A DNA stretch of 64,000 nucleotides from Phytoactinopolyspora alkaliphila (GTDB lineage Bacteria; Actinomycetota; Actinomycetes; Jiangellales; Jiangellaceae). A model generated the notes under the pieces. That model did not search any database. It saw only the letters and a list, made by a program, of their open reading frames with translations, and was not told the origin of the DNA. The position numbers and the translations under genes are program-made. Within the stretch, counting starts at the first letter, position 1. Each line of letters starts with the position of its first letter. This document shows, piece after piece, positions 843 to 44,089 of this stretch. The stretch spans positions 62,001 through 126,000 of the forward strand of contig NZ_JAAGOB010000007.1 of NCBI RefSeq assembly GCF_010550695.1, read 5' to 3'.

Positions 843-914
843 GGGCGCATAGCTCAGCGGTAGAGCACTGGTCTTACAAACCAGGGGTCGTTGGTTCGAA
901 CCCAACTGCGCCCA
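843..914 (+). tRNA. tRNA-Val (anticodon UAC), intact copy at attL
   Basis: A full cloverleaf can be folded. Acceptor GGGCGCA (843-849) pairs with TGCGCCC (907-913). Anticodon stem CTGGT/ACCAG (868-872 and 880-884) encloses loop CTTACAA, with anticodon TAC at 875-877. The T arm contains GGTTCGAACCC. The terminal CCA is not encoded. The 3' half from base 868 is repeated exactly at 44039, so the phage used this gene as its attachment site and its attP restored the tRNA. Confidence 0.97.
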
Positions 915-918
915 CCCC
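868..918 (+). other. attL: attL core (51-bp direct repeat)
   Basis: The 51 bases from the tRNA-Val anticodon stem to four bases past its discriminator are identical to 44039-44089. The flanking bases differ at both ends (A867 versus C44038, A919 versus C44090), which fixes the repeat length. The element between the copies is 43,171 bp including one core. Anticodon-stem to 3'-end identity is typical of tyrosine integrases. Confidence 0.96.
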
Positions 919-3353: not shown

Positions 3354-3586
3354 CGATCCCGACATCAGGTATGGATCATGCGCTTTCCGGCTGGCAGGAT
3401 GAGGAGCTCTTGGTGTACGAGCAGATCCGCACGCAGAGGGGTGGGCCTTGACCTGTCGAGGCAAAGGTAATGCACGCGGTGGTGGTGCGGCCGCCGCTGG
3501 CCACGGAAGCCGCTGGGTCGCGACACGAGCGACATGGCGTGCGACACTAGATATGTCGCCAGGCGCCACCGAAGGAGGTGACACTT

Positions 3587-4201: not shown

Positions 4202-4611
4202 GGCGCCGCTTTTTCATTGACGAGAATCTTTCACCCGAACTTGAAAATCCGCTAGATCGAGTGTTCAGGCAACACAAGTTCACAAGTGCACGTAGAGCCG
4301 CTTTGCTCGGAACCGACGACCAAGACCTTTTCAGGGAGCTTTCCGCTCGACGTTACGGTGCGATAATTACTGAAGATCGCGAACAACTCGAAGCGCAATA
4401 CGAGCGGGCTGCATTGCGGGACGCAGGTCTCCATTGGCTAGGAGTCCCGAAGGTGCCAGCCAGAGGCATCGCTCAGATCGTTTACGCCACATCTGTGATT
4501 GTTCCTGCGGTGCTCTATGTCCTCGAAAATTGGCACGATATCCCGACGGCCTACTTCGCTCGTGAGCCCCGCATGGGCGACCACTCGGTTATCACTTGTG
4601 AAGCGCTCTGA
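4198..4611 (+). CDS. PIN-like DUF5615-family toxin
   Basis: The protein has 137 residues, starting with TTG 4198 inside the antitoxin stop (TTGA). The N-terminus RRFFIDENLSPEL has the FxxDxNL strand typical of the PIN-like DUF5615/Mut7-C fold. A second acidic cluster, ALLGTDDQDLF, and the strand GAIITEDREQ follow at about residues 40-63, so the usual acidic metal-binding positions are present. Adjacent DUF433 and DUF5615 genes are an established putative toxin-antitoxin arrangement. RNase activity is inferred. Its lower GC, with several AT-rich stretches, suggests separate acquisition. Confidence 0.78.
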   Translation: MRRRFFIDENLSPELENPLDRVFRQHKFTSARRAALLGTDDQDLFRELSARRYGAIITEDREQLEAQYERAALRDAGLHWLGVPKVPARGIAQIVYATSVIVPAVLYVLENWHDIPTAYFAREPRMGDHSVITCEAL

Positions 4612-4924
4612 TCTCGCAGGCCGAAGTTGAGTGCTTAACATCGGGTGACGATCGATACACGTCGCACGGCTTCAACCAGCACCCATTCGTGTTGAGCCGC
4701 CCTCCGGAGCGGAGGATCTCGACGTAGACGTGCTTGGCGTCCCAGCGGCGCGCGACGCCCTCGACGTACTCGACGCCGTCACGTTCCCAGATGACGCGGG
4801 CACGGACGGGGACGCCGGGGTGGTGGGTCCGGTAGCTGCGCGGGTTCGCCGGCCAGTGGGTGTTCAGGATGGCCTGCTCCCGCAGTAGGTGCGGCGGTCG
4901 CATCCTGTCCTTGCCGAGCCCCAT
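4592..4924 (-). CDS. Small prophage protein on its own leaderless promoter
   Basis: The protein has 110 residues, ATG at 4924. The centre contains a strand-rich segment, VPVRARVIWERDGVEYVEGVA, followed by WDAKHVYVEIL, which looks like a small beta-barrel of the kind found in short actinophage proteins. The C-terminus overlaps the toxin gene tail by 20 bp in convergent orientation. No ribosome site precedes the start, but a perfect TATACT lies 6 nt upstream. Function unknown. Confidence 0.6.
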   Translation of the reverse strand: MGLGKDRMRPPHLLREQAILNTHWPANPRSYRTHHPGVPVRARVIWERDGVEYVEGVARRWDAKHVYVEILRSGGRLNTNGCWLKPCDVYRSSPDVKHSTSACEIRALHK

Positions 4925-23163: not shown

Positions 23164-24659
23164 CAGGCGGCCCGATCGAGCTGGGGCTCACCTTCGGGGT
23201 CCTCGTCCTCCACCGTCCGCAGCAGCGATTCGAGGTTGCGTTGCCCCTTCGCGCGGGCGGTCTGCTGCGGCGTGTATCCGAGCTTCTCCCGCGCTTCCTC
23301 CCACGTGATCAGCCCACCGTCGAACTCCTTGATGACGCCGTCGACGAGCTGCCCGTAGGTTTGGAACTCTGGATCTGCCCACACCATCTCGCTGTCGGCT
23401 GCGGCTTCGCCGTCTCCGGCCATGATCCGCGCGATCCGGTTGGTTTCCTCCAGCGGATCACCCAACGTGAGGTGTTTGCGTCGGACCACGGCGACCAGAC
23501 CTGTCTCAGCGGACTTGATCGCATCACCTGATGGCGACTGGCCCTCCTGGAACAGGTAGTGCCGCGGAATCCGCTTAATCGTGGACAGGTCCTGCAGGTC
23601 ACGCTCGCGGCTTTTCAGGTAACCGGTGAGGTCGGTTTCGCCGAACTCGCCGAACTTGACCTTGTCACTATCGACGGTCCACAGCCGGTCCAGCCACGCG
23701 TCGAACGGCTCCACCGGCCGCATCAGCGGCTTACCGTCCGATCCCATCATGATCTCGCCGTTGGCGTCTCTGACCGGTTCTTCCTCGACCACGAGGCCGG
23801 TGGCGTAGCGCTGCTTGAACGCTGCGAACCACTGCGCAATGACCTGATTGAGGATGGTCTCGTTGATCCGGTCCTGGATGCTGGTGACGTCGGCGAGGTC
23901 GGAGTCACCACCCCAAAGCAGGTATTTCCTGGTTTTCAGCTTCGCCCGCGTCAGCCGGGGACGGTTCTCCAACGGCACGATCGGGATGCCCTTGTACCCG
24001 CCGGGGTTGCGGATCGGATCACCGTCTCGCTGCCACTGAGAACTACCGGACGGGCGCTTGAACGGCAGCAGCCAGCCCGGCAGGAACAGGTCCCCACAGT
24101 CGTTGCCGGTCCACTCGTCGACGTACATCTTCAACGCCGCGGCGCGGCGGTGCCGCGATCCCGGCTCGTTCTCGACGATGCATTGGCCGGGATCCTCGGC
24201 GGCGATGGTTGGATACTTGTCACCTTCGTGCCGCCAGATCGACATGAACGCTCGGCCCTTCGCGAACGCTGTCTCGATCGCCAGCGGCGCGTCGGCGTCC
24301 ATGTTGGACGATTGCCAGATCTTCCACGAGTCCAGGTCGGCTTTGAAGTCACTGTCCGCGCCAAGCCGGAACCCGATTGGGCGGCACCGCTCGGCGACGG
24401 CGTCGATGACGGAACCCATAAAGTTCGCGTTGGACCGCTCGAGGACGGCCTTGTACGAGTTCCACACCCGTTGGCGGATCTTCTCCGGCATCCCCGGGAA
24501 TGGGTGGTCACCGACAAAGTACCGCCACCACAGGTCCATGGTGGGGATGTCGTCCTCGATCTGGCTTTCAAGGCGGGAGATCCACCACTCCGGGGTCAGG
24601 ACCTCCGCATCGTTGGGGAGATCAGCCGCCCCACTGGGGCCACGGTTGAGGTCGTCCAC
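23163..24659 (-). CDS. Portal protein
   Basis: The protein has 498 residues, ATG 24659. It matches the SPP1 gp6-type portal: WWISRLESQIEDDIPTMDLWW, RYFVGDHPFPGM, a strand KMYVDEWTG, the crown and stem region SDLADVTSIQDRINETIL, then SPSGDAIKSAETGLVAVV. The dodecameric portal is the DNA gate at the capsid vertex. A 77-bp stretch (23824-23900) recurs, diverged, at the 3' end of the HNH gene at 29226. Confidence 0.92.
   Translation of the reverse strand: MDDLNRGPSGAADLPNDAEVLTPEWWISRLESQIEDDIPTMDLWWRYFVGDHPFPGMPEKIRQRVWNSYKAVLERSNANFMGSVIDAVAERCRPIGFRLGADSDFKADLDSWKIWQSSNMDADAPLAIETAFAKGRAFMSIWRHEGDKYPTIAAEDPGQCIVENEPGSRHRRAAALKMYVDEWTGNDCGDLFLPGWLLPFKRPSGSSQWQRDGDPIRNPGGYKGIPIVPLENRPRLTRAKLKTRKYLLWGGDSDLADVTSIQDRINETILNQVIAQWFAAFKQRYATGLVVEEEPVRDANGEIMMGSDGKPLMRPVEPFDAWLDRLWTVDSDKVKFGEFGETDLTGYLKSRERDLQDLSTIKRIPRHYLFQEGQSPSGDAIKSAETGLVAVVRRKHLTLGDPLEETNRIARIMAGDGEAAADSEMVWADPEFQTYGQLVDGVIKEFDGGLITWEEAREKLGYTPQQTARAKGQRNLESLLRTVEDEDPEGEPQLDRAA
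23824..23900 (-). repeat. Portal segment duplicated at 29230-29306 (parent copy)
   Basis: These 77 bp align without gaps to 29230-29306 with 64 identities by hand count, including 29 identical bases at 23857-23885. Both are read in the same frame. Here they encode the conserved portal segment containing TSIQDRINET. Confidence 0.85.
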
Positions 24660-29229: not shown

Positions 29230-29783
29230 CCGAACCACCGTGCGATGGCCTCGTTCAGGAGCGTCTCGTTGATCCGGTCCTGGATGCTGGTCAGGTCTGC
29301 GAGGTCCTCGGTCGGTGAGGCGTCGAGGTATGCCAGTGCCTGCTCGATTCGGCCGTCGTCGCAGAGGACGACCCAGCCGTAAAACGTCGCGATGGGCACG
29401 CTGGCGGGGTTGACGTTGCGGCCTCGGATCTTCCACCCCGCCCGGTACGCCCATTCTGGGTGTTCCTCGACGTGACGGTGGCAGGCTTCGCAGAGCGTGA
29501 CGAGATTCGCTGGGCGGTTCAAGCTGGCGTCGGAGGAGCCGCCCATGCCGCGTGCGATGCGGTGATGGACCTGCAGCGCGTCGATGCTGTGGCAGCGTAG
29601 GCAGCCGCCGTCACGCTCGAGGACCTGGTCCCGGGTGCTCTGGGTTGGGCCCGTGTAGCGGGGCCGGGGCTTCCGGATCGGTACCTGGCGGATCGGCAGC
29701 CCGCTGGTGAGTTCCCCGGAACGCGACATCGGTGTCGACCGCTTCAGCGGGGTTTGGCGTTGCAGCGGCTTGCGGCGTTTCAC
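29226..29783 (-). CDS. HNH endonuclease with portal-derived C-terminal tail
   Basis: The protein has 185 residues, ATG 29783. A basic N-terminus (KRRKPLQRQTPLKR) precedes an HNH core: DGGCLRCHSIDALQVHHRIAR, then NLVTLCEACHRHVEEHPE. All zinc and metal ligands are present. The last 25 residues, containing TSIQDRINET, are not part of the family: 19 of 25 match the phage's own portal. The gene therefore seems to be fused in frame to a fragment of another portal gene. It lies in the early operon with 4-bp overlaps. Confidence 0.8.
   Translation of the reverse strand: MKRRKPLQRQTPLKRSTPMSRSGELTSGLPIRQVPIRKPRPRYTGPTQSTRDQVLERDGGCLRCHSIDALQVHHRIARGMGGSSDASLNRPANLVTLCEACHRHVEEHPEWAYRAGWKIRGRNVNPASVPIATFYGWVVLCDDGRIEQALAYLDASPTEDLADLTSIQDRINETLLNEAIARWFG
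29230..29306 (-). repeat. Portal-derived segment fused to the HNH gene
   Basis: This is an ungapped 77-bp match to portal bases 23824-23900 (64 identities, hand count), ending at the HNH stop codon. The frame is preserved. It is diverged by about 17 percent, so the source was a related phage or an old duplication. Confidence 0.85.
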
Positions 29784-30478
29784 GCGGTCCTCCGGGCGGC
29801 TCGGATCTTCTGGCGGGCAGCGGCGAGAGCGGCCTCGACGTCGGGAGGTCGGTCCTCCGTGGCGACCGCGCGGTCACGGCCGCGGCGGAACTCGTCGAGG
29901 GCAGCGCGGTCACGTGCACGGCGGGCCGCAGCTCGGCGGAGTCGCTCACGTTCTGCGGCTTGGCGGGTCGTTGTGCCGCAGCCGCGGCAGTTCGGCGCTG
30001 AGGTGAAGCCGTGGCGGGGGCAGTCGCCCACCGCGTCAGCGGGGGGTTGGGGGGGGAAAGCTTTTGGAGTTAGGGAAGGGGTCCGCTGGGCCGGACCCTT
30101 ACCGGACCCTTTCTCGGGTATTGGGTCCGGTGTGCCGGACGCTTTCTCGCCACCGATTGGGTCCAGTGGGGCGGACCCTTCCTCGTGGCTGTCGAGCGGG
30201 CCGTGCTCGGCGCAGCACCCGCCCGGCATCACAACGTACTCAGCGCGCCGGCCGCGATAGCCCGCAGACACCTTCACCAACAAGCCCGCGTCGACCAGCC
30301 CGGCGACGATCTCCAACGTTCTGGACTTCCCGACACCGGCCCACCGTTGAACGTTCTCCAGGCCCGGCATCGCCACACGCGTGTGCTTGTCCGCTGAGTC
30401 AGCGAACGCCATCAGGACCAACTTGGTCGACGGCGGCAAGTCGATCAGCGCGGCACGCTCAATCAAATGAATGCTCAT
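29780..30478 (-). CDS. Winged-helix protein, replication-initiator candidate
   Basis: The protein has 232 residues, ATG 30478. Residues 1-90 form a winged helix: LIERAALIDLPPSTKLVLMAF split by a turn, GLENVQRWAGVGKSRTLEIVAGL, then GLLVKVSAGYRGR. The middle is a low-complexity linker encoded by an array of GGGTCC palindromes (30079-30181). A CPRHGF/CRGCG zinc-like pair and an arginine-rich coiled coil follow. An N-terminal DNA-binding domain with repeats inside the gene recalls lambda O and its internal origin, so a role in replication is inferred. No helicase or polymerase is encoded. Confidence 0.6.
   Translation of the reverse strand: MSIHLIERAALIDLPPSTKLVLMAFADSADKHTRVAMPGLENVQRWAGVGKSRTLEIVAGLVDAGLLVKVSAGYRGRRAEYVVMPGGCCAEHGPLDSHEEGSAPLDPIGGEKASGTPDPIPEKGSGKGPAQRTPSLTPKAFPPQPPADAVGDCPRHGFTSAPNCRGCGTTTRQAAERERLRRAAARRARDRAALDEFRRGRDRAVATEDRPPDVEAALAAARQKIRAARRTA
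30079..30181 (-). repeat. Three imperfect GGGTCCG..CGGACCC palindromes (iteron-like)
   Basis: GGGTCCGCTGGGCCGGACCC starts at 30079, a GGGTCCGGTGTGCCGGACGC copy at 30123 and a GGGTCCAGTGGGGCGGACCC copy at 30159. CCGGACCC (30102-30109) and GGGTCCGG (30123-30130) make a further inverted pair. The spacing is 44 and 36 bp. They lie inside the winged-helix gene and may be an origin or operators. Confidence 0.6.
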
Positions 30479-30492
30479 GCGCACCCTGCCTG

Positions 30493-30498
30493 TACAGT
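30493..30498 (+). promoter_or_regulatory. Leaderless -10 (TACAGT) for the membrane gene at 30506
   Basis: TACAGT is followed by 7 nt and the ATG, with no ribosome site. The whole promoter lies within 27 bp between divergent start codons (30478 minus, 30506 plus). Confidence 0.55.
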
Positions 30499-30505
30499 TC
30501 CCGTC

Positions 30506-31036
30506 ATGCGGATGCAACAGGTTGAGATTCTCGTCGAGAATGACTGGACGGCGATCCTTCTAAGCGGGGGGCTGGGCGCACTAATCGGCGGACTCGCGAC
30601 GCTCGTTGGCGTCTGGTTTGCTGCGAGGAAAGAACGTGAAACTCGCAACAGCGAGCTGCTCGACGACGCAATGGGCAAGCTTATTGAGGTGTCTATTACC
30701 CTCACCCCTCGGTTGTGGTCGAAGAATGAGGGCGGCGCAGAGATCCCCGAAGAGGAAATCTCGGCTCTAGTCTGGGATATGACACACGCCATAATTACTT
30801 GCCGAGCGCGTTGCAAACGTGTCGCGCCAAAGCTCGACGTGCTCTTGATGGAGCTGTTCGACATGTGGTCGAATGACACGTCCGATGCTTCTGCGGTGGC
30901 CGCATACGGAGAGCTCGGCTTTCTCTGGTTCGCCGATTCTAAGGCGTTAAGAAACGGTCGAATGACGACGCAAGAGATAATCGCCATCGCGCAAGATGGA
31001 AGCAATGAGGCACCTTCTTTCCACAACCGCTCGTGA
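30506..31036 (+). CDS. Plus-strand membrane-anchored moron
   Basis: The protein has 176 residues. ATG 30506 is chosen over 30467 because the leaderless -10 lies between them. One transmembrane helix (about 15-37, LLSGGLGALIGGLATLVGVW) is followed by RKERETRNSELLDDAM and a helical cytoplasmic domain with KVxP-like and MELFDMW segments. It interrupts the minus-strand early operon, has lower GC, and has the same architecture as the gene at 33843. A superinfection-exclusion or defence role is inferred only. No family is recognised. Confidence 0.7.
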   Translation: MRMQQVEILVENDWTAILLSGGLGALIGGLATLVGVWFAARKERETRNSELLDDAMGKLIEVSITLTPRLWSKNEGGAEIPEEEISALVWDMTHAIITCRARCKRVAPKLDVLLMELFDMWSNDTSDASAVAAYGELGFLWFADSKALRNGRMTTQEIIAIAQDGSNEAPSFHNRS

Positions 31037-31070
31037 TTCAGGCACGCATGTCCGGCCCTGTTGCCACACG

Positions 31071-31505
31071 TCATCGGGGCCTCCGTTTGGGAAGGCGGGG
31101 GATGCGGTTCATGGCTGCCCAACCGGCGCACAACATGGCCGGGGTGCCATCGACCTGGAACGGGCGAGAACCGCGAAGCACGGGGCTGTACGCGCCCGGA
31201 GGTGCGTCACGGGATGCGCCAGACGGGTGCGCCCAACGCACCACCGCCGGCATGCCGTCGTGGCAGTAGAACGGCTCATCGGCAGAGAATTCCGGCGGCT
31301 CACACGCGGCACGCTCCGGAGAGTCGGCCCGGTACGCGCAGTCATGACACGACTCAGCACGCACCGCCGACGGGCCCTCCCTGGCTGGCTCCGGCTCACT
31401 GTTGAGGACCTCAACCCAGCACGTACACGCACCCGTGACCGCCGCGCCAATGCAACAACCCGAATCCTCGTCCGGAGGAGGCATCACGTCGCTGTTCAGG
31501 CTCAC
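31071..31505 (-). CDS. DUF6283-like cysteine-rich protein
   Basis: The protein has 144 residues. GTG 31505 overlaps the methyltransferase stop as GTGA. The N-terminus has cysteines (GCCIG, ACTCW). The core reads SCHDCAYRADSPERA, PFYCHDGMPAVVRW, then MLCAGWAAMNR. This CxxCxxR, CH, CAGW order matches DUF6283 proteins of actinophages, presumably zinc- or iron-binding. The surrounding open frame is much longer, but only this part is credible. Confidence 0.65.
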   Translation of the reverse strand: MSLNSDVMPPPDEDSGCCIGAAVTGACTCWVEVLNSEPEPAREGPSAVRAESCHDCAYRADSPERAACEPPEFSADEPFYCHDGMPAVVRWAHPSGASRDAPPGAYSPVLRGSRPFQVDGTPAMLCAGWAAMNRIPRLPKRRPR

Positions 31506-33091
31506 GCGGCGTCTCCGTCCTGGTCGGTGATGAGGCCGAGTAGGCCCATGTCTTCGCCGGCGAGTTCGAGCGCGCGGCGGGGGTCGCGGCGTCGGGCGAT
31601 GCGGGCTTCGATGAGCGGCAGGTACTTGGTTTCGCGTTCGATGGCGATGCAGTGGAAGCCTTCGAGGAGGGCGGCTTCGACGGTGGTTCCGGAGCCGGCG
31701 AACGGCTCGAGGACCGTGCCGCCGGGTGGTGTGACGAGGCGGACGAGCCACCGCATCAGGTCGAGCGGTTTGACCGTCGGGTGCGCTACGCCGTTGACGC
31801 GGGGCCGTTCGCCGGCGTCGGCCTTGGCCTCGTACCGGAACACGGGGAAGAAACGGGATGCCCCGCCGCTGCCGGCGCCACGGGCGGGCGTGCATTCCTC
31901 CTGGCCCTTGAAGTCCCCGTAGGCGTCGCGGAACTTGTCGGACCCGCGACGGGTGGGGTTGGCGCCGCTCGTGAGTTCGCCGGTTTGCTCGTCGAGTTCA
32001 GCCGCCAGGCCCTCCTCGAGGACTACGTTCGTCGGCCAGCGGCCGGAATCCGACCCCGTGACGTAGTCATCAGAAATGTTCCCGCCGTGATAGCCCAACT
32101 CGGCGGTGTTCCTGCGCCTCGTGGATGCATCACCAATCCGGCAGGCGTCGATGTTCAGCGCGCCGGTGCCGTGCTCGAGGACGTTCGCTGCGACGGTGCC
32201 GGCGAGAGGCTTGCGTCCGACGACGATCGGCTCGAATCCAGGCTTGAGCGCGGTGCCCCATCCCTGCCACTTGCGGGCGGCGTCGGTGGAGTGCTTCGTA
32301 ATCTCCAGGTCAACGGCCCTCCGGTCTGCACCCTGGCCCGGTGCGACAGCCAGACGACCCGCAGTCCGGGTGCCGACCTTCTCGCGCTCGGCCTCAGCGA
32401 TGACCGATCCCCACTTCTCGTCGTCCATGTCGAGCAGGTCGCGCAATGCCGGCCACCACTTCGCCTCGGGGAACTGGTGATGCTCCCAGTTCCAGCAGGC
32501 GCCTGTCCGGGCACCGACGACCCGCTCTGACACGTCGGCTCGCGATAGGCCCGCGGCCGCCCTCCGCTCTGCAAGGTGCGCAGCGAACTCCGCATGCCGT
32601 ATGACACCTGGCCGCTTGTCGATCGCCTTGCTGACGTTCAGCGACTTGGGGAACCCGCTGCCGTACAGCCACGCGACAGAGTCGCGGATCTCGAAGCCGG
32701 CGTCCTCAACCGCGGCGGCGAGCCGGTGCCAGGTGCGGGAGCCGCCGAACGAGACCAGGTGACCGCCGGGCTTGAGTATGCGGAGGCACTCGAGCGCCCA
32801 CGCGTGGCACCACTGCTGGAAGCGTTGATTCGCCAACGATGACCGGTCGTAGCGGCCGGCTTCCATCGCTGGGTGTGGCGCACCGCCGTATGACACGTTG
32901 CTGCCCCCGTGTGCAGCGCTGAGCGGTCCGAAGTCGCCGGGTTGGTCCCACTGGTGGCCCATGAATCCGATGCCATAGGGCGGGTCGGTGACGACGGCGT
33001 CAGCGCTGGCGTCGGGCAGCTCGGCAAGCACCTCGAGGACGTCCCCGTGGTGCAGGGTCACGCGGTCGTCGGTGTAGTAGGGGTCGGTCAT
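31502..33091 (-). CDS. Site-specific DNA methyltransferase (beta class) with embedded HTH
   Basis: The protein has 529 residues. ATG 33091 overlaps the previous stop. The catalytic motif DPPYGIGF is at 36-43 and the AdoMet motif FAGSGTT near 464, the order of beta-class N4-cytosine/N6-adenine enzymes. HPTVKPLDLM precedes motif I. About residues 150-230 form an inserted XRE-like helix-turn-helix (FAAHLAERRAAAGLSRADVSE) with conserved tryptophans. No restriction endonuclease is next to it, so it is probably an orphan enzyme protecting phage DNA. The target site is unknown. Confidence 0.88.
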   Translation of the reverse strand: MTDPYYTDDRVTLHHGDVLEVLAELPDASADAVVTDPPYGIGFMGHQWDQPGDFGPLSAAHGGSNVSYGGAPHPAMEAGRYDRSSLANQRFQQWCHAWALECLRILKPGGHLVSFGGSRTWHRLAAAVEDAGFEIRDSVAWLYGSGFPKSLNVSKAIDKRPGVIRHAEFAAHLAERRAAAGLSRADVSERVVGARTGACWNWEHHQFPEAKWWPALRDLLDMDDEKWGSVIAEAEREKVGTRTAGRLAVAPGQGADRRAVDLEITKHSTDAARKWQGWGTALKPGFEPIVVGRKPLAGTVAANVLEHGTGALNIDACRIGDASTRRRNTAELGYHGGNISDDYVTGSDSGRWPTNVVLEEGLAAELDEQTGELTSGANPTRRGSDKFRDAYGDFKGQEECTPARGAGSGGASRFFPVFRYEAKADAGERPRVNGVAHPTVKPLDLMRWLVRLVTPPGGTVLEPFAGSGTTVEAALLEGFHCIAIERETKYLPLIEARIARRRDPRRALELAGEDMGLLGLITDQDGDAA

Positions 33092-33312
33092 GGCAGGCAC
33101 TCCTGACAGACGTAGTCCCCCTTGTCGTCACGCCCGGCACGCTCGTCCGCGTGGATAGCGCCCTCGCACCAGCCACACCGGCCTTCGAACCGCGCCACGA
33201 ACACCGCAACCACGCGGGCATCGTCGTTCGTAGACGCCTCCCCGGTTCGGCCGGTGCAGTGGGCGCATGAGGCGGTGGGGAGGTCGGAGAAGTCGCACCG
33301 GGGGTCAGGCAT
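33088..33312 (-). CDS. 74-residue zinc-binding protein
   Basis: ATG 33312 is used; the longer start would run into the divergent promoter. Cysteine pairs CAHC, CGWC and CQEC, with intervening FVARFEGR and GDYV, suggest one or two zinc ribbons as in small actinophage proteins. The stop overlaps the methyltransferase ATG. Function unknown; coupling suggests the two are made together. Confidence 0.6.
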   Translation of the reverse strand: MPDPRCDFSDLPTASCAHCTGRTGEASTNDDARVVAVFVARFEGRCGWCEGAIHADERAGRDDKGDYVCQECLP

Positions 33313-33344
33313 CGTCGACTCTTCCCTGCGCACGATGGCGGCGG

Positions 33345-33350
33345 TAGCGT
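33345..33350 (+). promoter_or_regulatory. Leaderless -10 (TAGCGT) for the gene at 33357
   Basis: GGCGGTAGCGT is followed by CCAGTC and ATG 33357, with no ribosome site. It closely resembles the signal before 33843 (GGCGGTAGCCT, 6 nt, ATG). Confidence 0.5.
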
Positions 33351-33356
33351 CCAGTC

Positions 33357-33644
33357 ATGGATCCCGAGACCCCAGCACACGAGCCGAGCGAGCGGCAGAG
33401 GCAACTGCTCCGCGTCATCAAGGCACTGTTTGACGAGCAGGACGAGGCAAGGTCGTCGCGCCAGGGCGTCAACCAGGACCAGATCTTGGAACGCCTTGCC
33501 GACTGGACCCGAAGCGAAGTGGTCGTGACCGGCACGCAACTAGCCGACCTATACCTGGACACCAAGTCACCACCCGATGGCCTATACGTCTTGGACTTCA
33601 CGCCGGATGGCCTGTACTGGGCGAAGCGGCCGCCGTGGACATAG
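33357..33644 (+). CDS. Plus-strand moron, 95-residue winged-helix-like protein
   Basis: ATG 33357. It is soluble: an N-terminal helix RQRQLLRVIKALFDEQDEA, a helix DQILERLADWTRSEV, then TGTQLADLYLD and a wing-like DGLYVLDFTPDGLYW. The pattern suggests a winged helix, though no family is recognised. It is inserted in the early operon against the direction of its neighbours and carries its own leaderless promoter, so it is probably expressed in the lysogen. Confidence 0.65.
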   Translation: MDPETPAHEPSERQRQLLRVIKALFDEQDEARSSRQGVNQDQILERLADWTRSEVVVTGTQLADLYLDTKSPPDGLYVLDFTPDGLYWAKRPPWT

Positions 33645-33668
33645 CCGTTGTATCCGGTGGTTGAGCCA

Positions 33669-33785
33669 TCACTCACCACCCCCGTCGAGGGCGTGGATGG
33701 TGAAGCACCGACGGCCTCGCACGATGAAGTCGGCGAGGCCGTCCTCGTCGGCGCACCAGTGATCAACAGTGTGCCCCGCCGGCAT
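33669..33785 (-). CDS. 38-residue early micro-protein
   Basis: ATG 33785 lies behind TGGAGGTGGCG. The product (HTVDHWCADEDGLADFIVRG, then RCFTIHAL) has two cysteines and a strand-turn-strand look seen in small actinophage proteins. It lies between two plus-strand morons and keeps the minus-strand direction of the early operon. Short, so moderate confidence. Confidence 0.45.
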   Translation of the reverse strand: MPAGHTVDHWCADEDGLADFIVRGRRCFTIHALDGGGE

Positions 33786-33830
33786 CACACGCCACCTCCA
33801 TCGCCGTAGACACCCCGGATGCGGTGGCGG

Positions 33831-33836
33831 TAGCCT
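33831..33836 (+). promoter_or_regulatory. Leaderless -10 (TAGCCT) for the membrane gene at 33843
   Basis: GTGGCGGTAGCCT, six bases, then ATG 33843, with no ribosome site. The flanking GGCGG is shared with the promoter at 33345. Confidence 0.5.
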
Positions 33837-33842
33837 CCGGGA

Positions 33843-34355
33843 ATGTTCTTGGGGGTTGAGGTGGGAGAAATCACATGGGCCGTTCTCTTAAACGGAGCCG
33901 TGGGCGTGGTGGGAGCGGCCGGTGCTGTTTGTCTCGGGTTTTGGCTGAGTCGTGCCGCCAAGCGGCGTGACGACCTCGCGCTCGCTGTCGAGGAGCTTCG
34001 ATCAATGACGACGCTTCTGATCGTGATCTGGCGGACGAAGAACGACAAGGGTGAAAGTAAGGGGTATAGCTCCGAGGAGCTCCTGAGATTCCACGAACTC
34101 GCCCGACTGAGCGGCCGGGTGATGGCGTGTACAAGCTGGTGGGACCATCGCCTGCGAGCTGAGATCCGAATGCGGATGTTGCCGATAGCGGAGGCGGTTT
34201 GGGACCGAAACGTTGAGCCGCCAAGTAACCTCGCGGTGCTCCTAACGACGTGGCTTAACAAGCGGTGGCGTTTCAGGCTCCGGCTGGCGACCGTTCCACA
34301 GCCGCCGAGCGGCTTGACGCCCAAGGCGAAGGACACTAGGGCCCAAGTGGGGTAA
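33843..34355 (+). CDS. Second plus-strand membrane-anchored moron
   Basis: The protein has 170 residues. A transmembrane helix (about 12-35, VLLNGAVGVVGAAGAVCLGFW) leads into LSRAAKRRDDLALAVEELRS, a helical domain (LLRFHELARLSGRVMAC) and a basic C-terminus (WLNKRWRFRLRL). The single N-terminal membrane helix followed by a basic helix and a helical cytosolic domain matches the 30506 product, though direct identity is low. Both sit in the minus-strand early operon with leaderless starts. Function unknown. Confidence 0.7.
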   Translation: MFLGVEVGEITWAVLLNGAVGVVGAAGAVCLGFWLSRAAKRRDDLALAVEELRSMTTLLIVIWRTKNDKGESKGYSSEELLRFHELARLSGRVMACTSWWDHRLRAEIRMRMLPIAEAVWDRNVEPPSNLAVLLTTWLNKRWRFRLRLATVPQPPSGLTPKAKDTRAQVG

Positions 34356-34389
34356 TTCAGGTTCGCCCGGTCGAGGGGCTGTCGCTCGG

Positions 34390-34554
34390 TCATGCTGTCG
34401 GCTCCTGTGTGTGGTGGATGACGTAGGCCGCGGCCACGCGTGCGCGGGCCAGGTCGAGTGCTTCGGACACGGTTGTGCCGGGGTGGAGCGCGACTGTGAC
34501 AGTCATGCCGCCCGCGGGGTGCTCGACGGTGACGGTGACGTGGGCCGCGGTCAC
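34390..34554 (-). CDS. 54-residue early protein
   Basis: GTG 34554 overlaps the previous stop as GTGA. The protein is a predicted beta-beta-alpha unit: AHVTVTVEHPAGGMTVTVAL, then PGTTVSEALDLARARVAAAY. Similar short proteins with a TVSEAL helix occur in phage early regions. No role can be assigned. Confidence 0.5.
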   Translation of the reverse strand: MTAAHVTVTVEHPAGGMTVTVALHPGTTVSEALDLARARVAAAYVIHHTQEPTA

Positions 34555-34754
34555 GGTGTCCTCCGGTTGTTGCGTGTGGTCAGGTAGGTGGGTCCGCCCG
34601 GTGCGGTGCGGCGGTGCAGATGTGGGCGGCACCGCGGGCACGGGGCCGGTCGGCCGTCGTGGTCCTCACCGAGCCAGCCGTCCTTGCACACGTGGTCGTC
34701 GGTGTCCGGGTAAAGGTCGCCGTCACGGTCGCGGGTCATGTTGTCGTCGGCCAT
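34551..34754 (-). CDS. 67-residue zinc-binding early protein
   Basis: ATG 34754 overlaps the previous stop (TGATG). The sequence DRDGDLYPDTDDHVCKDGWLG, broken here by a turn, then PAPCPRCRPHLHRR, has three cysteines and histidines in the order of single-zinc small actinophage proteins (DxxxHxCxxGWLGxD..CPxCRP). Function unknown. Confidence 0.6.
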   Translation of the reverse strand: MADDNMTRDRDGDLYPDTDDHVCKDGWLGEDHDGRPAPCPRCRPHLHRRTAPGGPTYLTTRNNRRTP

Positions 34755-35050
34755 CACGCCGCCCGGGCAGGTGTGAGTGGCAGCATCCGCGGGTCGACAA
34801 GGGTCCACGTCAGCAGCTCGTCAGCGCTGCGGTCTGGGTTGACCATCGCGGCGAGGACCACCATGGCGGCGATCGCTGTCTGAACCTCGTCACCCATGGC
34901 GGGTGACAGGCCGAGATGGCGGTAGATGACCGCCTCGATCTCGGCGCGGCCGTAGTCGTGGACGCAGCCCACCAGCTCGGCCGCGAACGGGACCAGCGCC
35001 TCGGCCATGTCGCGTAGCTGTTCTTCTTGTTCCGGTGTTAGGGCGGTCAC
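34754..35050 (-). CDS. 98-residue helical early protein
   Basis: GTG 35050 overlaps the preceding micro-gene stop. It is all helical: LTPEQEEQLRDMAEALVPFA, LVGCVHDYGRAEIEAVIYRH, then VQTAIAAMVVLAAMVNPDRS. It is soluble or weakly amphipathic. No family is recognised. Its place in an unbroken chain of overlaps after the ParB-like gene supports it. Confidence 0.55.
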   Translation of the reverse strand: MTALTPEQEEQLRDMAEALVPFAAELVGCVHDYGRAEIEAVIYRHLGLSPAMGDEVQTAIAAMVVLAAMVNPDRSADELLTWTLVDPRMLPLTPARAA

Positions 35051-35217: not shown

Positions 35218-36381
35218 TTACGCGAGGCGGGGAGTTCTCCACTCCAGCACTTCCGAGGCGATCCACAGCGCCACGTCAGGGGATTCAAGGTCAACGTCGA
35301 GGCCCAGAAGGTCACACCAGTCGGTGACGTCGAAGAGGTCCGCCTCGAGGAGGTGTAGAACGAACTGGCGCAGCATCGCCTCGGTTCCGGCGGGCTTCGG
35401 TGCGTGGCGAGCTGACAGGGTGCCGCGGATCCACTTGATGCGGTGCTCGCGGGCACCGGCCAGGTCGTCGGCGAGGCGCTGTTCCTCCGCGGCGCGGGCC
35501 GCGACTTTCTCGTCGGTGACCGTGGGGGCGGGTTGTGGAGCGGGTTCGGTGGTTACGCCGTGCACTGTGGGGTCGAGGCAGTATTCCTGCACGTAGTGAG
35601 GCCAAACGACAATTGCGTGCCCCGTCGGGTGGTGTTTGCGGTGCTGGGCCGGGGTCATGCTGAGGGTCCACTCGTCGACACGGCGGGCACCGGCTGGGAT
35701 ATCCGTGGCGCCGTCGTGGTGGTAGACCTTCCCGCCGGCTGACTCCACCTCGGTCACGAGTTCGGTGTTTCGGCGTTGCCGGTCACGTTGATGCCGCAGC
35801 GCGTAAATGGTGGCGTCCATGTCGGCGGCTGAGGTCGCAGCGAGACGGTCCAGCATGTCGGGGTCGTCGGTGAACTCGGCGATCGCGTCAGCTTGACCGA
35901 GGGTGAGCTGACCGTCGTGGACCAGCTCGCGGGTGGTTTCAGGTAGGCGCATCAGGTCAAGGCGGCGCCGGACGGTGGACTCGGCGCGGCCGGTTCGGCG
36001 GGCGATCTCGGCTGGGGACACGTCGAACAGTGCGAGCCGCTGATACGCGGTGGCCTCCTCCACGGGGGTTAGGTCCGAGCGTTGGAGGTTTTCCACCAGC
36101 ATCGCCTCGATGATGTCGGCCTCGCTGGTGAGGTCGTGGCGGATCACACAGTCGACGCGGTTGAGGCCGACCAGGGTGGCGGCGGCGTGGCGGCGGTGCC
36201 CGGCGATGATGACCCACATGCCGGGGATTTCCGGGTCGGGTGCGACGAGGATGGGCTGCAGGAGACCTTTGGCGTCGATGGAGTCGGCGAGTTCGGTGAG
36301 GTCGCCGACGTCGAGACGCACGTTCGCCGGGTGCGGGCGGACCTTCTCCAGTGCGAGCCGTTCAATGGTGGTGGCATTCAT
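35218..36381 (-). CDS. ParB-like nuclease-fold protein
   Basis: The protein has 387 residues, ATG 36381. The ParB N-terminal fold has RPHPANVRLD, GLLQPILV and the CTP-binding-type motif GHRRHAA (61-67), then VENLQRSDLTPVEEA. The HTH is EIARRTGRAESTVRRRLDLM. A 190-residue C-terminal extension is less conserved. No ParA is encoded and the phage is integrated, so plasmid-like partition is unlikely. It more likely acts as a DNA-binding regulator or ParB-type nuclease. Confidence 0.82.
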   Translation of the reverse strand: MNATTIERLALEKVRPHPANVRLDVGDLTELADSIDAKGLLQPILVAPDPEIPGMWVIIAGHRRHAAATLVGLNRVDCVIRHDLTSEADIIEAMLVENLQRSDLTPVEEATAYQRLALFDVSPAEIARRTGRAESTVRRRLDLMRLPETTRELVHDGQLTLGQADAIAEFTDDPDMLDRLAATSAADMDATIYALRHQRDRQRRNTELVTEVESAGGKVYHHDGATDIPAGARRVDEWTLSMTPAQHRKHHPTGHAIVVWPHYVQEYCLDPTVHGVTTEPAPQPAPTVTDEKVAARAAEEQRLADDLAGAREHRIKWIRGTLSARHAPKPAGTEAMLRQFVLHLLEADLFDVTDWCDLLGLDVDLESPDVALWIASEVLEWRTPRLA

Positions 36382-40520: not shown

Positions 40521-40606
40521 CGCCCACCACCGGTGCTCGGGCTCTGTTGCGGTCGAGCCGGCGGACGGTTGTCTGGTGGCGCGGTGGGGCGCGGCGAAGT
40601 GCTCAT
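40517..40606 (-). CDS. 29-residue proline-rich micro-protein
   Basis: ATG 40606 overlaps the Cro-like stop as ATGA and is preceded by AAGGAGGACGCGCG. The product is disordered (SPRPTAPPDNRPPARPQQSP). The strong ribosome site and overlaps at both ends support translation. It may mainly relay ribosomes. Confidence 0.4.
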   Translation of the reverse strand: MSTSPRPTAPPDNRPPARPQQSPSTGGGR

Positions 40607-40866
40607 CGCGCGTCCTCCTTTATGCGCTCAAACAGCGCCGTGAGTCGTACATCGAGCACGCCTGCTAGCCGCATCGCTGAGGTGATGCTCACTGCCTCAC
40701 CACGCCGGATTCGGTAGAGGGTTCGCTCAGGTATGCCGGTCAATTTGGCCTGCTCAGCGACGGTTGTGGCCCCCCGTTCCGCGACGAGCGCGTCGTACAC
40801 GTCGCGGCGGAGGCGGATGGGACTGTCAACCATGGCGGCGGGGATGGTGGTTGTAGTGCCATGCAT
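40603..40866 (-). CDS. Cro-like XRE regulator, first gene of the early operon
   Basis: The protein has 87 residues. ATG 40866 is chosen because a TTGACT-N18-TAGCGT promoter ends 7 nt before it; the upstream ATG 40893 lies inside the promoter. RRDVYDALVAERGATTVAEQ, AKLTGIPERTLYRIRRGEA and SITSAMRLAGVL form the XRE domain. Operators O1 and O2 overlap its start and promoter. It is transcribed away from the repressor gene, as Cro is, and leads the minus-strand lytic genes. Confidence 0.78.
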   Translation of the reverse strand: MHGTTTTIPAAMVDSPIRLRRDVYDALVAERGATTVAEQAKLTGIPERTLYRIRRGEAVSITSAMRLAGVLDVRLTALFERIKEDAR

Positions 40867-40897
40867 GGCGGTGACGCTAGCACCGCCATGCATGGCA
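40857..40897. promoter_or_regulatory. Operators O1/O2: 41-bp perfect inverted repeat
   Basis: Seventeen bases (40857-40873) are exactly inverted at 40881-40897 around ACGCTAG. Each arm contains the 12-bp palindrome GCCATGCATGGC (O1 40858-40869, O2 40885-40896). O1 covers the start of the Cro-like gene and O2 lies between its -35 and -10. Repressor binding here would shut off the lytic operon. Confidence 0.8.
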
Positions 40898-40961: not shown

Positions 40962-41572
40962 ACAAGAGTCGTCCTCGCGATACTCGGCCCGCTGGTCGCG
41001 CACGCATCCGTGCGTGGAAATCACTGCCGAGAGTGGCAGAGGACGTGGCGCCGCAGATGGCATATCGTGCTGGCATGGCGCGCGAAGAAGTGTCGCGATC
41101 CGCGTTTTCGAGGGCGGTCCAGCGAGCCCGCGGCCTACATGGTTGGTCGCAGCAGCAACTCGCCGAGCGTAGTGGCATCGGTGAGCGCACCATTGCGCGC
41201 TGGGAGAAGGAGGGCGGCGACCCGTATATCGGCCAGGTTCGTAAACTCGTCGCTGCCACCGGCATCCCGGCCGAGGACGTACTGCGCGCGGTTGGACTCC
41301 TGCCGGAGCACGCTGAGGTGCGCGACGACCTGACGGCCGACGAGCAAGAGCTTTGGGCTCTCGGTCACCGGCGCGGATGGTCGGAGGAGTTGCGCTGGGA
41401 TCTGATTGACTTCCTTCGTGTGCGCAAAGCGCGAGCCAGACGCACCGCCGAGGATGACCCCAACGCGATCGCGGCAGAGATGAACGCAGTGTTGAAGCGG
41501 GACTTTTCAGACACCGAGGTCGCTGACGAGGGCGACGCGCTCGGCGAGGCGACGCGCCGTTACGGAACGTAG
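40955..41572 (+). CDS. Immunity repressor (XRE family)
   Basis: The protein has 205 residues, ATG 40955, leaderless. A basic N-terminal extension (1-45) precedes an XRE domain at about 50-110: FSRAVQRARGLHGWSQQQLA, ERSGIGERTIARWEKEGGDP. The C-terminal part is helical and acidic. There is no LexA/S24 peptidase domain, so induction by RecA-stimulated self-cleavage is not expected. Its divergence from the Cro-like gene across TGCCATGCATGGCA operators identifies it as the lysogenic repressor. Confidence 0.82.
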   Translation: MADKSRPRDTRPAGRARIRAWKSLPRVAEDVAPQMAYRAGMAREEVSRSAFSRAVQRARGLHGWSQQQLAERSGIGERTIARWEKEGGDPYIGQVRKLVAATGIPAEDVLRAVGLLPEHAEVRDDLTADEQELWALGHRRGWSEELRWDLIDFLRVRKARARRTAEDDPNAIAAEMNAVLKRDFSDTEVADEGDALGEATRRYGT

Positions 41573-41667: not shown

Positions 41668-42531
41668 ATGACATCCCCGGACGAAGAGCTCGATCCCGAC
41701 GTTCTACGGGTCGAACTCGAATATCATCACGCAGCAGCCCGTCGACACGCCGCATACGCCAGAAGGTCCCGCGATCGACTACTCCAGGCACTCGCCGAAC
41801 GGATGACGCCGGAGCAGCGGCGAGCGTGGATACGACAGTCCACGAGGGCCATCAAGGCCGTCCTCATCGGCGCCTGCGGCTGGTTCATCGAGCAGGCCCG
41901 CGATCACACCGCACGCTCCGCTGTCGTGAGCGCGACCGCGCTCGTCGCCACCGGCTCCACGCAGGTAATCCCCACCGTGATCGAACGGCCGCCGCTCGTC
42001 ATCGCAATGGAGCAGCCAGCGCCGGAGGTGGTGACGCCGGAGCCACCGCCGTCTACGCCGGAACCGCCAGCGCCGACAGTGACCACCACGACCACAGCCA
42101 CGGCGACGGCTACCGCAACCGAGACCGTAACGGCCACGCCTCACCCACTGGACATCTCAACCCCCGAGCCGACACCCACGGCAACCGTTCCCCAACCCAC
42201 ACGCACGCCCAAAGCTGTGGCCGCGACGACGCCCCCCGACACCGAGCCCATGAACGAGCCGACGTTCTTCGTGCCCGAGAACCGCGTAACCATGCCGCCA
42301 ACTGTGCCAACGTCCACGCCAACGGCCACGCCGACACCTACGCGCTCTCCGGACGCCCCGCCGGCCGCGACGGAGTGTGTCGAGCTGCCGGAGAGGACGG
42401 GCGTCTCGGGAACCGTGTGCGAGCCGCCGCCGGAGCGTGACCCGGACGGGGAGTGGCTGGACTGCCTACAGCTGGAGAGGCTCACAGAGATCATGCGGTG
42501 CGTGCGGAACCCTGACAAGTGGTTCACCTAG
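41668..42531 (+). CDS. Thr/Pro-rich surface-type protein, lysogen side
   Basis: The protein has 287 residues, ATG 41668; no ribosome site precedes it, and CAGAAT lies 8 nt upstream. A helical N-terminus (HHAAARRHAAYARRSRDRLL) leads to a hydrophobic stretch (about 65-105) that may cross the membrane. About 120 residues of Thr/Pro/Ala low complexity follow (TVTTTTTATATATATETVTA). The C-terminus has four cysteines (ECVELPE, GTVCEPPPE, WLDCLQLE, MRCVRN). It follows the repressor on the plus strand and overlaps the integrase stop by 4 bp. It is probably exposed outside the membrane in lysogens. Confidence 0.65.
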   Translation: MTSPDEELDPDVLRVELEYHHAAARRHAAYARRSRDRLLQALAERMTPEQRRAWIRQSTRAIKAVLIGACGWFIEQARDHTARSAVVSATALVATGSTQVIPTVIERPPLVIAMEQPAPEVVTPEPPPSTPEPPAPTVTTTTTATATATATETVTATPHPLDISTPEPTPTATVPQPTRTPKAVAATTPPDTEPMNEPTFFVPENRVTMPPTVPTSTPTATPTPTRSPDAPPAATECVELPERTGVSGTVCEPPPERDPDGEWLDCLQLERLTEIMRCVRNPDKWFT

Positions 42532-43895
42532 CCGAGTTCCTGGAGGTACAGGGTGCCGGCCACTTCGCCGAGCGCTTCCGCGATGTGGCGAACATCTGCG
42601 TGCTTGTAGGCGTCCTGGACGGCGAGTGAGGCGTGCCCGGCGATCGCTTGAATGATCTTCGGGTCGACTCGGGCCTCCATCAGCAGCGTGACGGTGGTGT
42701 GTCGGGATTCGTGCGGCACGATGTCCGGCAGCCCCGCGGCCCGCAGGTGAGCGTCGAGGATCTTCGCGTCCTCCTGCCGGGAGATGGGGGAGCCGTCCTC
42801 ACGATGCCACACGAGGTTGTGGGGATTCGGTGTGGCGTCGGCCTTTCGGTGAGCCTTGATCGCTGCGTACAGGGGAGTGGGGATCGGGAGTATGCGGGTG
42901 GACCTCTCGCTCTTTGGGCGGATCAGACACATGCCGCCGGCGAGCTGGCGATACTCGAACTTGTCCGGCAGCCGGAGGACCTTGTCGGGGCAGTTTCCGC
43001 CCCGCTTGCGCCCGCACGGCCAGGTGCCGTCCTGGTCCTCCTCGGCACAACCATGGATGAAGGTCAACCGTTGCAGCTGCCAGGAGATGTCCATGATGCG
43101 AGCGTCGAGGTCCACACGGTCCCACGTGAGACCGAGGCATTCGCCTTGCCGGACTCCTGTCAGTAGCGCCATGGCCCACCGCGACGAGTTCCGATCGATC
43201 GGAGTGCCCTGATCGGTGGTGCTGCTGACGTAACGCAGGAGCGCCCGGCCCTGATCGGGTGTCAGCGCCGAACGGTCGGAGTCCCCACCGGCCGGTGCGT
43301 CCATCAGCTTGGCGACGTTCTGCATCACGAGGCCCTCGCGGATGGCATCGTTGAGGGCCTTGCGGATGGCGATGTGTGCGTGTGGCCGAGATCCCGCCTT
43401 GCCCCGCTTCTTCATGTCGGCATACAGGGCGCGCAGGTGTTCCGGGCGTAGTCGGTCGATGCGGTGCCGGCCGACGCCGGGGATGAGGTCGTTGGTGACC
43501 GAGTAGCGGTACCGGTCGTATGTGCTGGGTGCCTTGTGGGGGAGGACGAACTCGTCGAGCCATCGGGTCAGCCACGCGGCGACGGTGGGCCGCTGGAGGG
43601 GCACGTCGCCGTGCCGGGCGTGCTCCTTCTTCATGTCGTCCAGGGCGGCGTATGCGCCGTTCTCGGTTGCCGAGGTGCGTTGGGGCCGGCGCGGCTTCCC
43701 ATCCGGGCCTGGGCCGAGGTCGAGGCGCGCGACCCACATGCCTCGGCACTTATGCTTCGGCCGGACGAGTTTGACCGATCCATCGTCCTGCGTGACCTCT
43801 TTGCGTGGCGGGCATCCTCGGTCGAGATCGCATCGTTGGAATACGGCCCCCTCGCCGCGGCGGCGCTTCTTCTTCGCCGGTTGAGATGGACTCAT
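42528..43895 (-). CDS. int: Tyrosine integrase
   Basis: The protein has 455 residues, ATG 43895 behind AAGGGGG. The catalytic residues are all visible: R249 (LTGVRQGE), K328 (RPKSERSTR), H395 and R398 (HESRHTT), H421 (GHAS) and the nucleophile Y430 (DAYKHAD). Residues about 103-195 form the SAM-like core-binding domain, and the basic N-terminal part with three cysteines may bind the arm sites. An insertion with C283, C294 and C302 lies between the R and K motifs. It catalyses integration at tRNA-Val. Confidence 0.95.
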   Translation of the reverse strand: MSPSQPAKKKRRRGEGAVFQRCDLDRGCPPRKEVTQDDGSVKLVRPKHKCRGMWVARLDLGPGPDGKPRRPQRTSATENGAYAALDDMKKEHARHGDVPLQRPTVAAWLTRWLDEFVLPHKAPSTYDRYRYSVTNDLIPGVGRHRIDRLRPEHLRALYADMKKRGKAGSRPHAHIAIRKALNDAIREGLVMQNVAKLMDAPAGGDSDRSALTPDQGRALLRYVSSTTDQGTPIDRNSSRWAMALLTGVRQGECLGLTWDRVDLDARIMDISWQLQRLTFIHGCAEEDQDGTWPCGRKRGGNCPDKVLRLPDKFEYRQLAGGMCLIRPKSERSTRILPIPTPLYAAIKAHRKADATPNPHNLVWHREDGSPISRQEDAKILDAHLRAAGLPDIVPHESRHTTVTLLMEARVDPKIIQAIAGHASLAVQDAYKHADVRHIAEALGEVAGTLYLQELG

Positions 43896-43957: not shown

Positions 43958-44038
43958 ACTCAGTGCAGCGAATCGCCTCTGACCTGGCAGTATGTCGGTT
44001 CAGGTGATGTTTGCAGACGCTGGGATGATGGCGTAACC

Positions 44039-44089
44039 CTGGTCTTACAAACCAGGGGTCGTTGGTTCGAACCCAACTGCGCCCACCCC
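44039..44089 (+). other. attR: attR core (3' half of tRNA-Val)
   Basis: The core is identical over 51 bases to 868-918. It lacks the tRNA 5' half, so it is not a functional tRNA gene. It marks the right end of the prophage. From here to 44212 I see no gene. Confidence 0.96.

What the first reader, a model, noticed from the sequence alone, without database searches (positions are those of the whole stretch)
30506..34355. Three plus-strand morons inserted into the minus-strand early operon, two with the same membrane-anchor architecture
Genes at 30506, 33357 and 33843 run against the early operon, each with its own leaderless signal. The 30506 and 33843 products (176 and 170 residues) both have a single N-terminal membrane helix, a basic juxtamembrane helix and a helical cytosolic domain, but little direct identity. 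Membrane-anchored proteins made in lysogens often exclude other phages. This pair, with the small winged-helix-like product of 33357, could be an undescribed exclusion or abortive-infection set.
Basis: partly seen in the sequence, partly recalled or inferred. Interest (0 to 1): 0.62.

Follow-up and report, generated by a model that had tools for sequence, protein, structure and literature searches.

The report
Prophage cargo: two related membrane proteins
A dormant virus in an actinobacterium carries three extra genes facing against its own growth genes; two of them are distant cousins of a membrane protein that related bacteria keep on their chromosomes, and they may change or protect the host cell, though what they do is untested.

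Summary
Inside a 43-kb Jiangellaceae prophage, three plus-strand genes (30506-31036, 33357-33644, 33843-34355) run against the minus-strand early operon. Each start has a leaderless -10 signal, and all three have lower G+C than their neighbours. The 176- and 170-residue products have one N-terminal membrane helix and a helical cytosolic part. They are not merely similar in architecture: a profile made only from other bacteria's proteins finds the 30506 product (22.9 bits; best of 2000 shuffles 14.3). Both belong to one undescribed family with 13 members in the 22 Jiangellaceae genomes held: these two, a conserved chromosomal gene in 10 of 12 Jiangella-group genomes, and one copy beside conjugation genes. 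All 13 carry the same leaderless signal. No Pfam, NCBIfam, PHROGs or PADLOC model and no solved fold identifies the two. The predicted fold is a membrane-tethered four-helix bundle with no recognisable enzyme. The two prophage copies have opposite cytosolic charge (-6 and +8). Best reading: autonomously expressed lysogenic cargo acting through protein contacts at the membrane, possibly superinfection exclusion. The exclusion role is plausible but untested, and the conserved chromosomal copies argue that the family is not a dedicated phage weapon.

The parts
868..918 (.). attL core: 51-bp direct repeat, 3' end of tRNA-Val(TAC)
   Evidence: identical 51-nt repeat reaching into tRNA-Val 843-916
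44039..44089 (.). attR core, same 51 bp, 3' end of tRNA-Val 44015-44087
30506..31036 (+). Cargo gene 1 (P0001), 176 aa: acidic short N-terminus, one membrane helix, acidic helical cytosolic domain (net -6, pI 4.9)
30493..30498 (+). -10-like TANNNT (TACAGT), 7 nt before the ATG at 30506
33357..33644 (+). Cargo gene 2 (P0002), 95 aa, orphan; possible small DNA-binding fold not confirmed
33345..33350 (+). -10-like TAGCGT, 6 nt before the ATG at 33357
33843..34355 (+). Cargo gene 3 (P0003), 170 aa: one membrane helix, basic helical cytosolic domain (net +8, pI 10.5)
33831..33836 (+). -10-like TAGCCT, 6 nt before the ATG at 33843
29780..30478 (-). Early-operon gene, replication-initiator-like (PHROG 391), starts divergently from cargo gene 1
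   Evidence: (PHROG 391 E 4e-6)
31071..31481 (-). Early-operon gene, cysteine-rich product; ends facing cargo gene 1 (reading by eye, no family match)
31502..33100 (-). Early-operon DNA methyltransferase (N6_N4_Mtase) between cargo genes 1 and 2
   Evidence: (E 2.5e-28)
33088..33312 (-). Early-operon small cysteine-rich gene, starts divergently from cargo gene 2
33664..33785 (-). Possible small early-operon gene (38 aa) between cargo genes 2 and 3 (reading by eye)
34390..34641 (-). Early-operon small gene, ends facing cargo gene 3
35218..36381 (-). Early-operon ParB-like gene
40603..40893 (-). Cro/C1-type helix-turn-helix gene at the head of the early operon (alternative start 40866 also leaderless)
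41075..41572 (+). Likely immunity repressor (HTH_3), divergent from the early operon
42528..43895 (-). Tyrosine integrase

Best explanation
The three genes are lysogenic cargo (morons) set between genes of the early operon, each read from its own leaderless -10 promoter in the direction of the repressor and against the early operon. Genes 1 and 3 encode diverged members of one undescribed Jiangellaceae family of single-pass membrane proteins. Each has a short acidic segment outside, one signal-anchor helix running straight into a long cytosolic helix, and three more helices that fold back to a four-helix bundle. With no enzyme fold and no catalytic motif, they most likely work as membrane-tethered binding modules in the lysogen, holding or blocking a partner at the inner face of the membrane. 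The most likely benefit is exclusion of competing mobile elements or phages. Shown: location, orientation, coding bias, signal, homology, family distribution. Predicted only: topology and fold. Inferred: expression in the lysogen, binding role, exclusion. My separate estimates: cargo genes 0.85; genes 1 and 3 homologous 0.9; membrane-tethered binding module 0.6; exclusion as the benefit 0.35.
For: Coding bias on the plus strand. 3 of the 6 leaderless-type ATGs among 514 on the prophage plus strand are these starts; a TANNNT signal close to the start is the published actinobacterial and mycobacterial pattern (PMC3160421 and PMC3898074, passages). G+C 0.559, 0.628, 0.612 against 0.672-0.71 for seven neighbouring genes. 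Constance: 30 of 30 genes 41-70 on one strand, the last cut by the stretch; prophiGD43A-5: 39 of 39 CDSs shown on one strand. Homology: the profile of 10 family rows without gene 3 scores gene 1 at 22.9 bits, best of 2000 shuffles that keep its N-terminus 14.3; hhalign 37.8, 0 of 600 shuffles above 29.7, 0 of 33 chromosomal N-terminal-helix proteins above 21.5. Family: gene 3 matches 11 of 22 Jiangellaceae genomes, own included; the combined profile recovers 13 members; 13 of 13 leaderless. Models: helices 12-68, 77-96, 99-120, 128-149 for gene 3 (pLDDT 71.5) and 13-72, 82-102, 107-124, 128-143 for gene 1 (pLDDT 61). A copy near TraG/TraD-type, TrbL and integrase genes in G015.
Against: No expression data. 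No plus-strand terminator-like or -35 site was found in 30300-34800. No PADLOC match. In 10 of 12 Jiangella-group genomes the family is a fixed chromosomal gene downstream of a YgjP-like peptidase gene, which suggests a host function. Homology of gene 1 is weaker when its cytosolic part is tested alone: hhalign 23.6, and 1 of 200 shuffles reached 24.0. The gene 1 model used an alignment that already contained the family, so its matching helix layout is not independent. No insertion scar or empty site could be read, because no syntenic relative was found.
Confidence: 0.4

Rival explanations
1. Host-function mimics: the prophage carries altered copies of a Jiangellaceae housekeeping membrane adaptor and uses them to tune host physiology (envelope, division or stress), with no direct role in excluding phages.
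For: The family is a conserved chromosomal gene in 10 of 12 Jiangella-group genomes, the others 74-92% identical to the G012 copy over the matched stretches and all beside the same YgjP-like gene; every member keeps the same leaderless start.
Against: The prophage host has no chromosomal copy, nor do the four other genomes of its genus. Both prophage copies are very diverged, unlike recently captured host genes.
Confidence: 0.3
2. Transcriptional interference: what matters is the antisense transcription from these plus-strand promoters, which damps leaky early-operon transcription in the lysogen; the proteins are secondary.
For: All three promoters point against the early operon, and the three ATGs lie 28, 45 and 58 bp from divergent minus-strand starts (from; the third minus-strand gene is read by eye); no plus-strand terminator was seen.
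Against: The reading frames show coding bias and homology across genera, so proteins are selected. Chromosomal relatives carry the same promoter type beside a gene on their own strand.
Confidence: 0.1
3. Lytic-cycle proteins: the genes are ordinary early phage genes (for example membrane-active takeover or lysis-timing proteins) that merely face the other way.
For: They sit in the early region and the larger two are membrane proteins; weak sub-threshold matches of gene 1 to a holin and a LapA model.
Against: No match to holin, lysis or structural families above cut-off; relatives exist on chromosomes beside non-phage genes; two related phages have no such reversed genes.
Confidence: 0.1
4. Chance: the similarity of genes 1 and 3 is only shared composition of small membrane proteins.
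For: Direct BLASTP E 4.3; the cytosolic part alone is not clearly beyond shuffles (1 of 200 higher).
Against: 0 of 600 hhalign shuffles, 0 of 2000 HMMER shuffles, 0 of 33 and 0 of 23 other N-terminal-helix ORFs reach the observed score.
Confidence: 0.08

Closest known systems
Undescribed Jiangellaceae family (chromosomal gene downstream of a YgjP-like peptidase gene in Jiangella)
   Same: Full-length homology, N-terminal F.G...ITW..LL.GA membrane segment, helical cytosolic part, leaderless start
   Different: Prophage copies are 28-34% (gene 3) and 22-24% (gene 1) identical to the others; gene 1 has an acidic instead of a basic cytosolic part
Sbash gp30/gp31 and lambda RexAB (PMC6426596, passages read)
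   Same: Prophage-borne pair with a membrane protein, expressed in lysogens in the published cases; works-like comparison only
   Different: RexB and gp31 have four membrane segments and the partner is a DUF4747 protein; here both members are single-pass and homologous to each other
P22 SieA, T4 Imm and other membrane superinfection-exclusion proteins (PMC11436027, passages; PMC10883804, listing and start of abstract only)
   Same: Proteins made by a resident phage that block DNA entry at the membrane; works-like comparison only
   Different: No family match to any library model, and no evidence of function here
Prophage morons
   Same: Low-G+C genes between operon genes, opposite strand, private promoter-like signal
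   Different: No plus-strand terminator-like site found by a simple scan

Membership tests
Jiangellaceae single-pass membrane family (defined here) | Profile match along most of the protein | tested here: met
   Gene 3: 28-34% to relatives over about residues 2-155. Gene 1: 22.9 bits against a profile without gene 3, 22-24% to Jiangella rows
Jiangellaceae single-pass membrane family (defined here) | One N-terminal membrane helix followed by a helical bundle | tested here: met
   Models (moderate confidence; the gene 1 model is not independent of the family alignment)
Jiangellaceae single-pass membrane family (defined here) | Leaderless TANNNT start | tested here: met
   13 of 13 members, gap 6 nt in 12 and 7 nt in gene 1; background 27 of 274 called genes in 20 stretches of G015, with any start in the first 50 codons allowed
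Prophage moron | Inside a prophage, out of step with the operon around it | tested here: met
   att repeats and phage genes; opposite strand; two related phages without reversed early genes
Prophage moron | Own promoter | tested here: inconclusive
   -10-like signal present in all three; no -35 match; transcription unmeasured
Prophage moron | Own terminator | tested here: inconclusive
   0 plus-strand T-tract hairpins in 30300-34800; the scan covers only that terminator type
Prophage moron | Different base composition from neighbours | tested here: met
   0.559, 0.628, 0.612 against 0.672-0.71
Prophage moron | Expressed in the lysogen | not testable with these tools
   no transcript data
Superinfection exclusion or abortive infection | Match to a described defence family | tested here: not met
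   PADLOC: 0 families for all three at E up to 1; the library cannot hold undescribed systems
Superinfection exclusion or abortive infection | Reduces infection by other phages | not testable with these tools
   needs infection assays
RexB-type depolariser | Four membrane segments | tested here: not met
   models show a single N-terminal membrane-length helix
Holin or lysis protein | Family match above cut-off | tested here: not met
   best 12.7 bits against a cut-off of 26 for Phage_holin_2_1, gene 1
Winged-helix DNA-binding protein (gene 2) | Profile or structural match to a winged helix | tested here: inconclusive

The most novel reading that the evidence does not exclude
Genes 1 and 3 are the two halves of one charge-complementary membrane complex. 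The cytosolic bundles are homologous but opposite in charge (net -6 and +8), so they could pair side by side under the membrane and keep each other inactive until a superinfecting phage or conjugating element disturbs the pair. This would be a two-component exclusion device built by co-opting a Jiangellaceae membrane protein family that also lies beside at least one other mobile element. The small gene 2 would be a regulator or third part.
Probability: 0.12. Interest if true: 0.7.

Novelty: new member of a known kind. Interest (0 to 1): 0.4.

Why it matters
It links a chromosomal gene of unknown role, kept in most Jiangella-group genomes at one place, to copies on a prophage and near conjugation genes. 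That makes a concrete question testable: do resident mobile elements borrow a host membrane protein to exclude competitors, or to steer the host? It also gives an undescribed protein family with a recognisable signature (ITW..LL.G, a single helix and an R/C/D-rich cytosolic bundle) and a start type shared by all 13 members.

Tried and rejected
Phage and plasmid records: no match for gene 1 or gene 3 in phages at E 0.1, nor for gene 2; gene 1 none in plasmids, gene 3 only E 0.2-0.7 DinG helicase stretches in Vibrio plasmids, rejected; two relatives searched in phages, none. Viral contigs: scans with each of the three genes and with two family alignments found no relative.

Wider genomes: single-sequence searches of 396 phylum genomes found only the own genome. 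Profile searches of 393 class and 346 phylum genomes added, outside the family, six weak partial matches at E 8.8e-5 to 9e-3: two and four. Three of them are read through stops (one, two); I did not count any of the six as members. A weak match of the combined profile to an ABC-permease-like frame and one of gene 2 to an unrelated frame were rejected by eye.

Structure: Foldseek gave nothing at E <= 0.001 for gene 3 in PDB or BFVD, or for gene 1 in BFVD. The VIA second look gave best Z 12.2 (rmsd 13.8, 133 aligned) for gene 3 and 7.7 (rmsd 4.4, 116 aligned) for gene 1, which the tool itself rates as possibly only common helical arrangements. PDB sequence matches of the family profile to an entry named RPB_PLP3_R6 (E 0.0022) and to TRPC6 channels (E 0.3-0.4) were rejected.

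Empty site: I hoped that relatives of the methyltransferase would show the locus without the insertions; in 80 viral loci only the methyltransferase and distant HNH or ParB pieces matched, not in synteny. A screen of those 80 loci for leaderless N-terminal-helix genes gave 4 candidates, one convincing to the eye (L100), none homologous. Ends of the G015 conjugative element: no direct repeat of 18 bp or more between the two stretches, no tRNA. The tree could not place genes 1 and 3; branches too long. A first control set of 23 N-terminal-helix ORFs was poor, as many are probably not genes, so a second of 33 was made.

Papers: 'Jiangella' with 'prophage' gave no paper; searches for exclusion with leaderless, single transmembrane or entry exclusion, and for prophage-mediated defence or morons, listed nothing on this family. 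That is a search of open PMC papers only.
Full report
What is there. A 51-bp direct repeat, the 3' end of tRNA-Val, at 868-918 and 44039-44089 bounds a 43-kb prophage with integrase, portal, capsid, terminase and tape-measure genes. Most of its genes run on the minus strand. A Cro/C1-type gene (40603-40893) heads the early operon and a likely repressor (41075-41572) faces away from it.

The three genes. Plus-strand ORFs at 30506-31036, 33357-33644 and 33843-34355 interrupt the early operon on both sides of a methyltransferase gene. Codon scores favour them over the opposite-strand ORFs. Their G+C (0.559, 0.628, 0.612) is below that of seven neighbouring genes (0.672-0.71). Each start has TANNNT 6-7 nt upstream and no Shine-Dalgarno-like motif. 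Among 514 plus-strand ATGs of the prophage only six have such a signal, and three of the six are these. In M. tuberculosis a TANNNT motif precedes 73% of primary start sites, and about a quarter of genes are leaderless (PMC3898074, passages). In high-GC bacteria TAnnnT about 12 bp before the start codon marks leaderless genes (PMC3160421, passages). No plus-strand terminator-like site was found. In two related phages the early genes shown run on one strand without a reversed gene: 30 of 30 from gene 41 to gene 70 in Arthrobacter phage Constance (gene 70 is cut by the stretch) and 39 of 39 CDSs in prophiGD43A-5.

They are one family. Direct comparison of genes 1 and 3 shows nothing (BLASTP E 4.3). 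Gene 3, however, has full-length relatives in 10 other Jiangellaceae genomes of 22 searched. A profile of ten of those relatives, with gene 3 left out, scores gene 1 at 22.9 bits; the best of 2000 shuffles that keep gene 1's real N-terminus is 14.3. Profile-profile comparison gives a score of 37.8, above all 600 shuffles of three kinds (best 29.7), all 33 N-terminal-helix proteins called in stretches of G015 (best 21.5) and all 23 of a poorer set (best 19.0). Against this, the cytosolic part of gene 1 alone scores 23.6, and one of 200 shuffles scored 24.0, so the evidence needs both halves of the protein. The combined profile finds 13 members in the 22 genomes: genes 1 and 3, ten chromosomal copies and one further copy in G015. 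An earlier profile search of 393 class genomes missed gene 1 although its genome was included, because few candidates per genome were scored; the wide searches may therefore miss other diverged members.

Distribution. The ten chromosomal copies are in 10 of the 12 genomes of the Jiangella group (g5); G008 and G011 have none. In all ten the copy lies just downstream of a gene that in the one copy scanned is a YgjP-like metallopeptidase (16 loci were read, of which five repeat genomes under names and one, without the neighbour, is the G015 extra copy). That extra copy (L004, L015) lies about 8 kb from a TrbL-like gene, with a TraG/TraD-type gene and a phage-type integrase further off, at the edge of what looks like a conjugative element whose ends I could not map. 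All 13 members have the leaderless signal, 12 with a gap of 6 nt and gene 1 with 7. In 20 stretches of G015, 27 of 274 called genes have such a signal, allowing any start in the first 50 codons. The ten chromosomal copies are orthologues, so they count as one case.

Fold and likely mechanism. Models give one long helix from the membrane segment into the cytosol and three or more further helices, for gene 3 with pLDDT 71.5 and pTM 0.60 and for gene 1 with 61.0 and 0.44. The gene 1 model used the family alignment, so its layout is not independent. Fold searches return only general helical bundles. Acidic residues before and basic residues after the membrane helix suggest N-out, C-in topology (from the sequence; the positive-inside rule is recalled). 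The cytosolic part is acidic in gene 1 (net -6) and basic in gene 3 (+8) and in all ten other rows examined (+6 to +9). With no enzyme fold in sight, a membrane-tethered binding role is the most economical reading.

Exclusion or not. Membrane proteins that block entry or abort infection are well known from prophages (PMC6426596 and PMC11436027, passages). Carriage on a prophage and near conjugation genes would suit such a role. The conserved chromosomal copies suit a host function equally well. No tool result separates the two. Gene 2 has no relative anywhere searched except an unconvincing E 0.009 stretch and I cannot say what it is.

Verdict. The exclusion reading is possible, not shown.

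Noticed in passing
window 3578-4611 (+): A DUF433 gene (3578-4201) overlapping a PIN_10-domain gene (4198-4611): an antitoxin-toxin-like pair near attL.
   Followed up: partly
window 2273-3169 (+): A gene with a C-terminal RyR domain (E 5e-10) near attL, part of a second plus-strand cargo cluster at about 1-6 kb with lower G+C.
   Followed up: no
window 4592-4924 (-): 110-residue orphan whose ATG at 4924 also has a leaderless TANNNT signal.
   Followed up: no
window 23825-23900 and 29231-29306: A 76-nt repeat at 84% identity shared by the portal gene and the end of the HNH endonuclease gene: the HNH protein seems to carry a tail related to part of the portal protein.
   Followed up: no
window 41668-42531 (+): 287-residue protein between repressor and integrase with a Thr/Pro-rich stretch and no Pfam match; plus strand, possibly also a lysogenic gene.
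   Followed up: no
L100:744-1256 (+): Viral contig with a leaderless, single N-terminal-helix gene near a relative of the methyltransferase; similar architecture, no detectable homology to genes 1 or 3.
   Followed up: partly
L015 and L125 (G015:C1 about 4.142-4.168 Mb): A conjugative-element-like region (integrase, TraG/TraD-type, TrbL, GntR and HTH genes) with a family member at its edge.
   Followed up: partly
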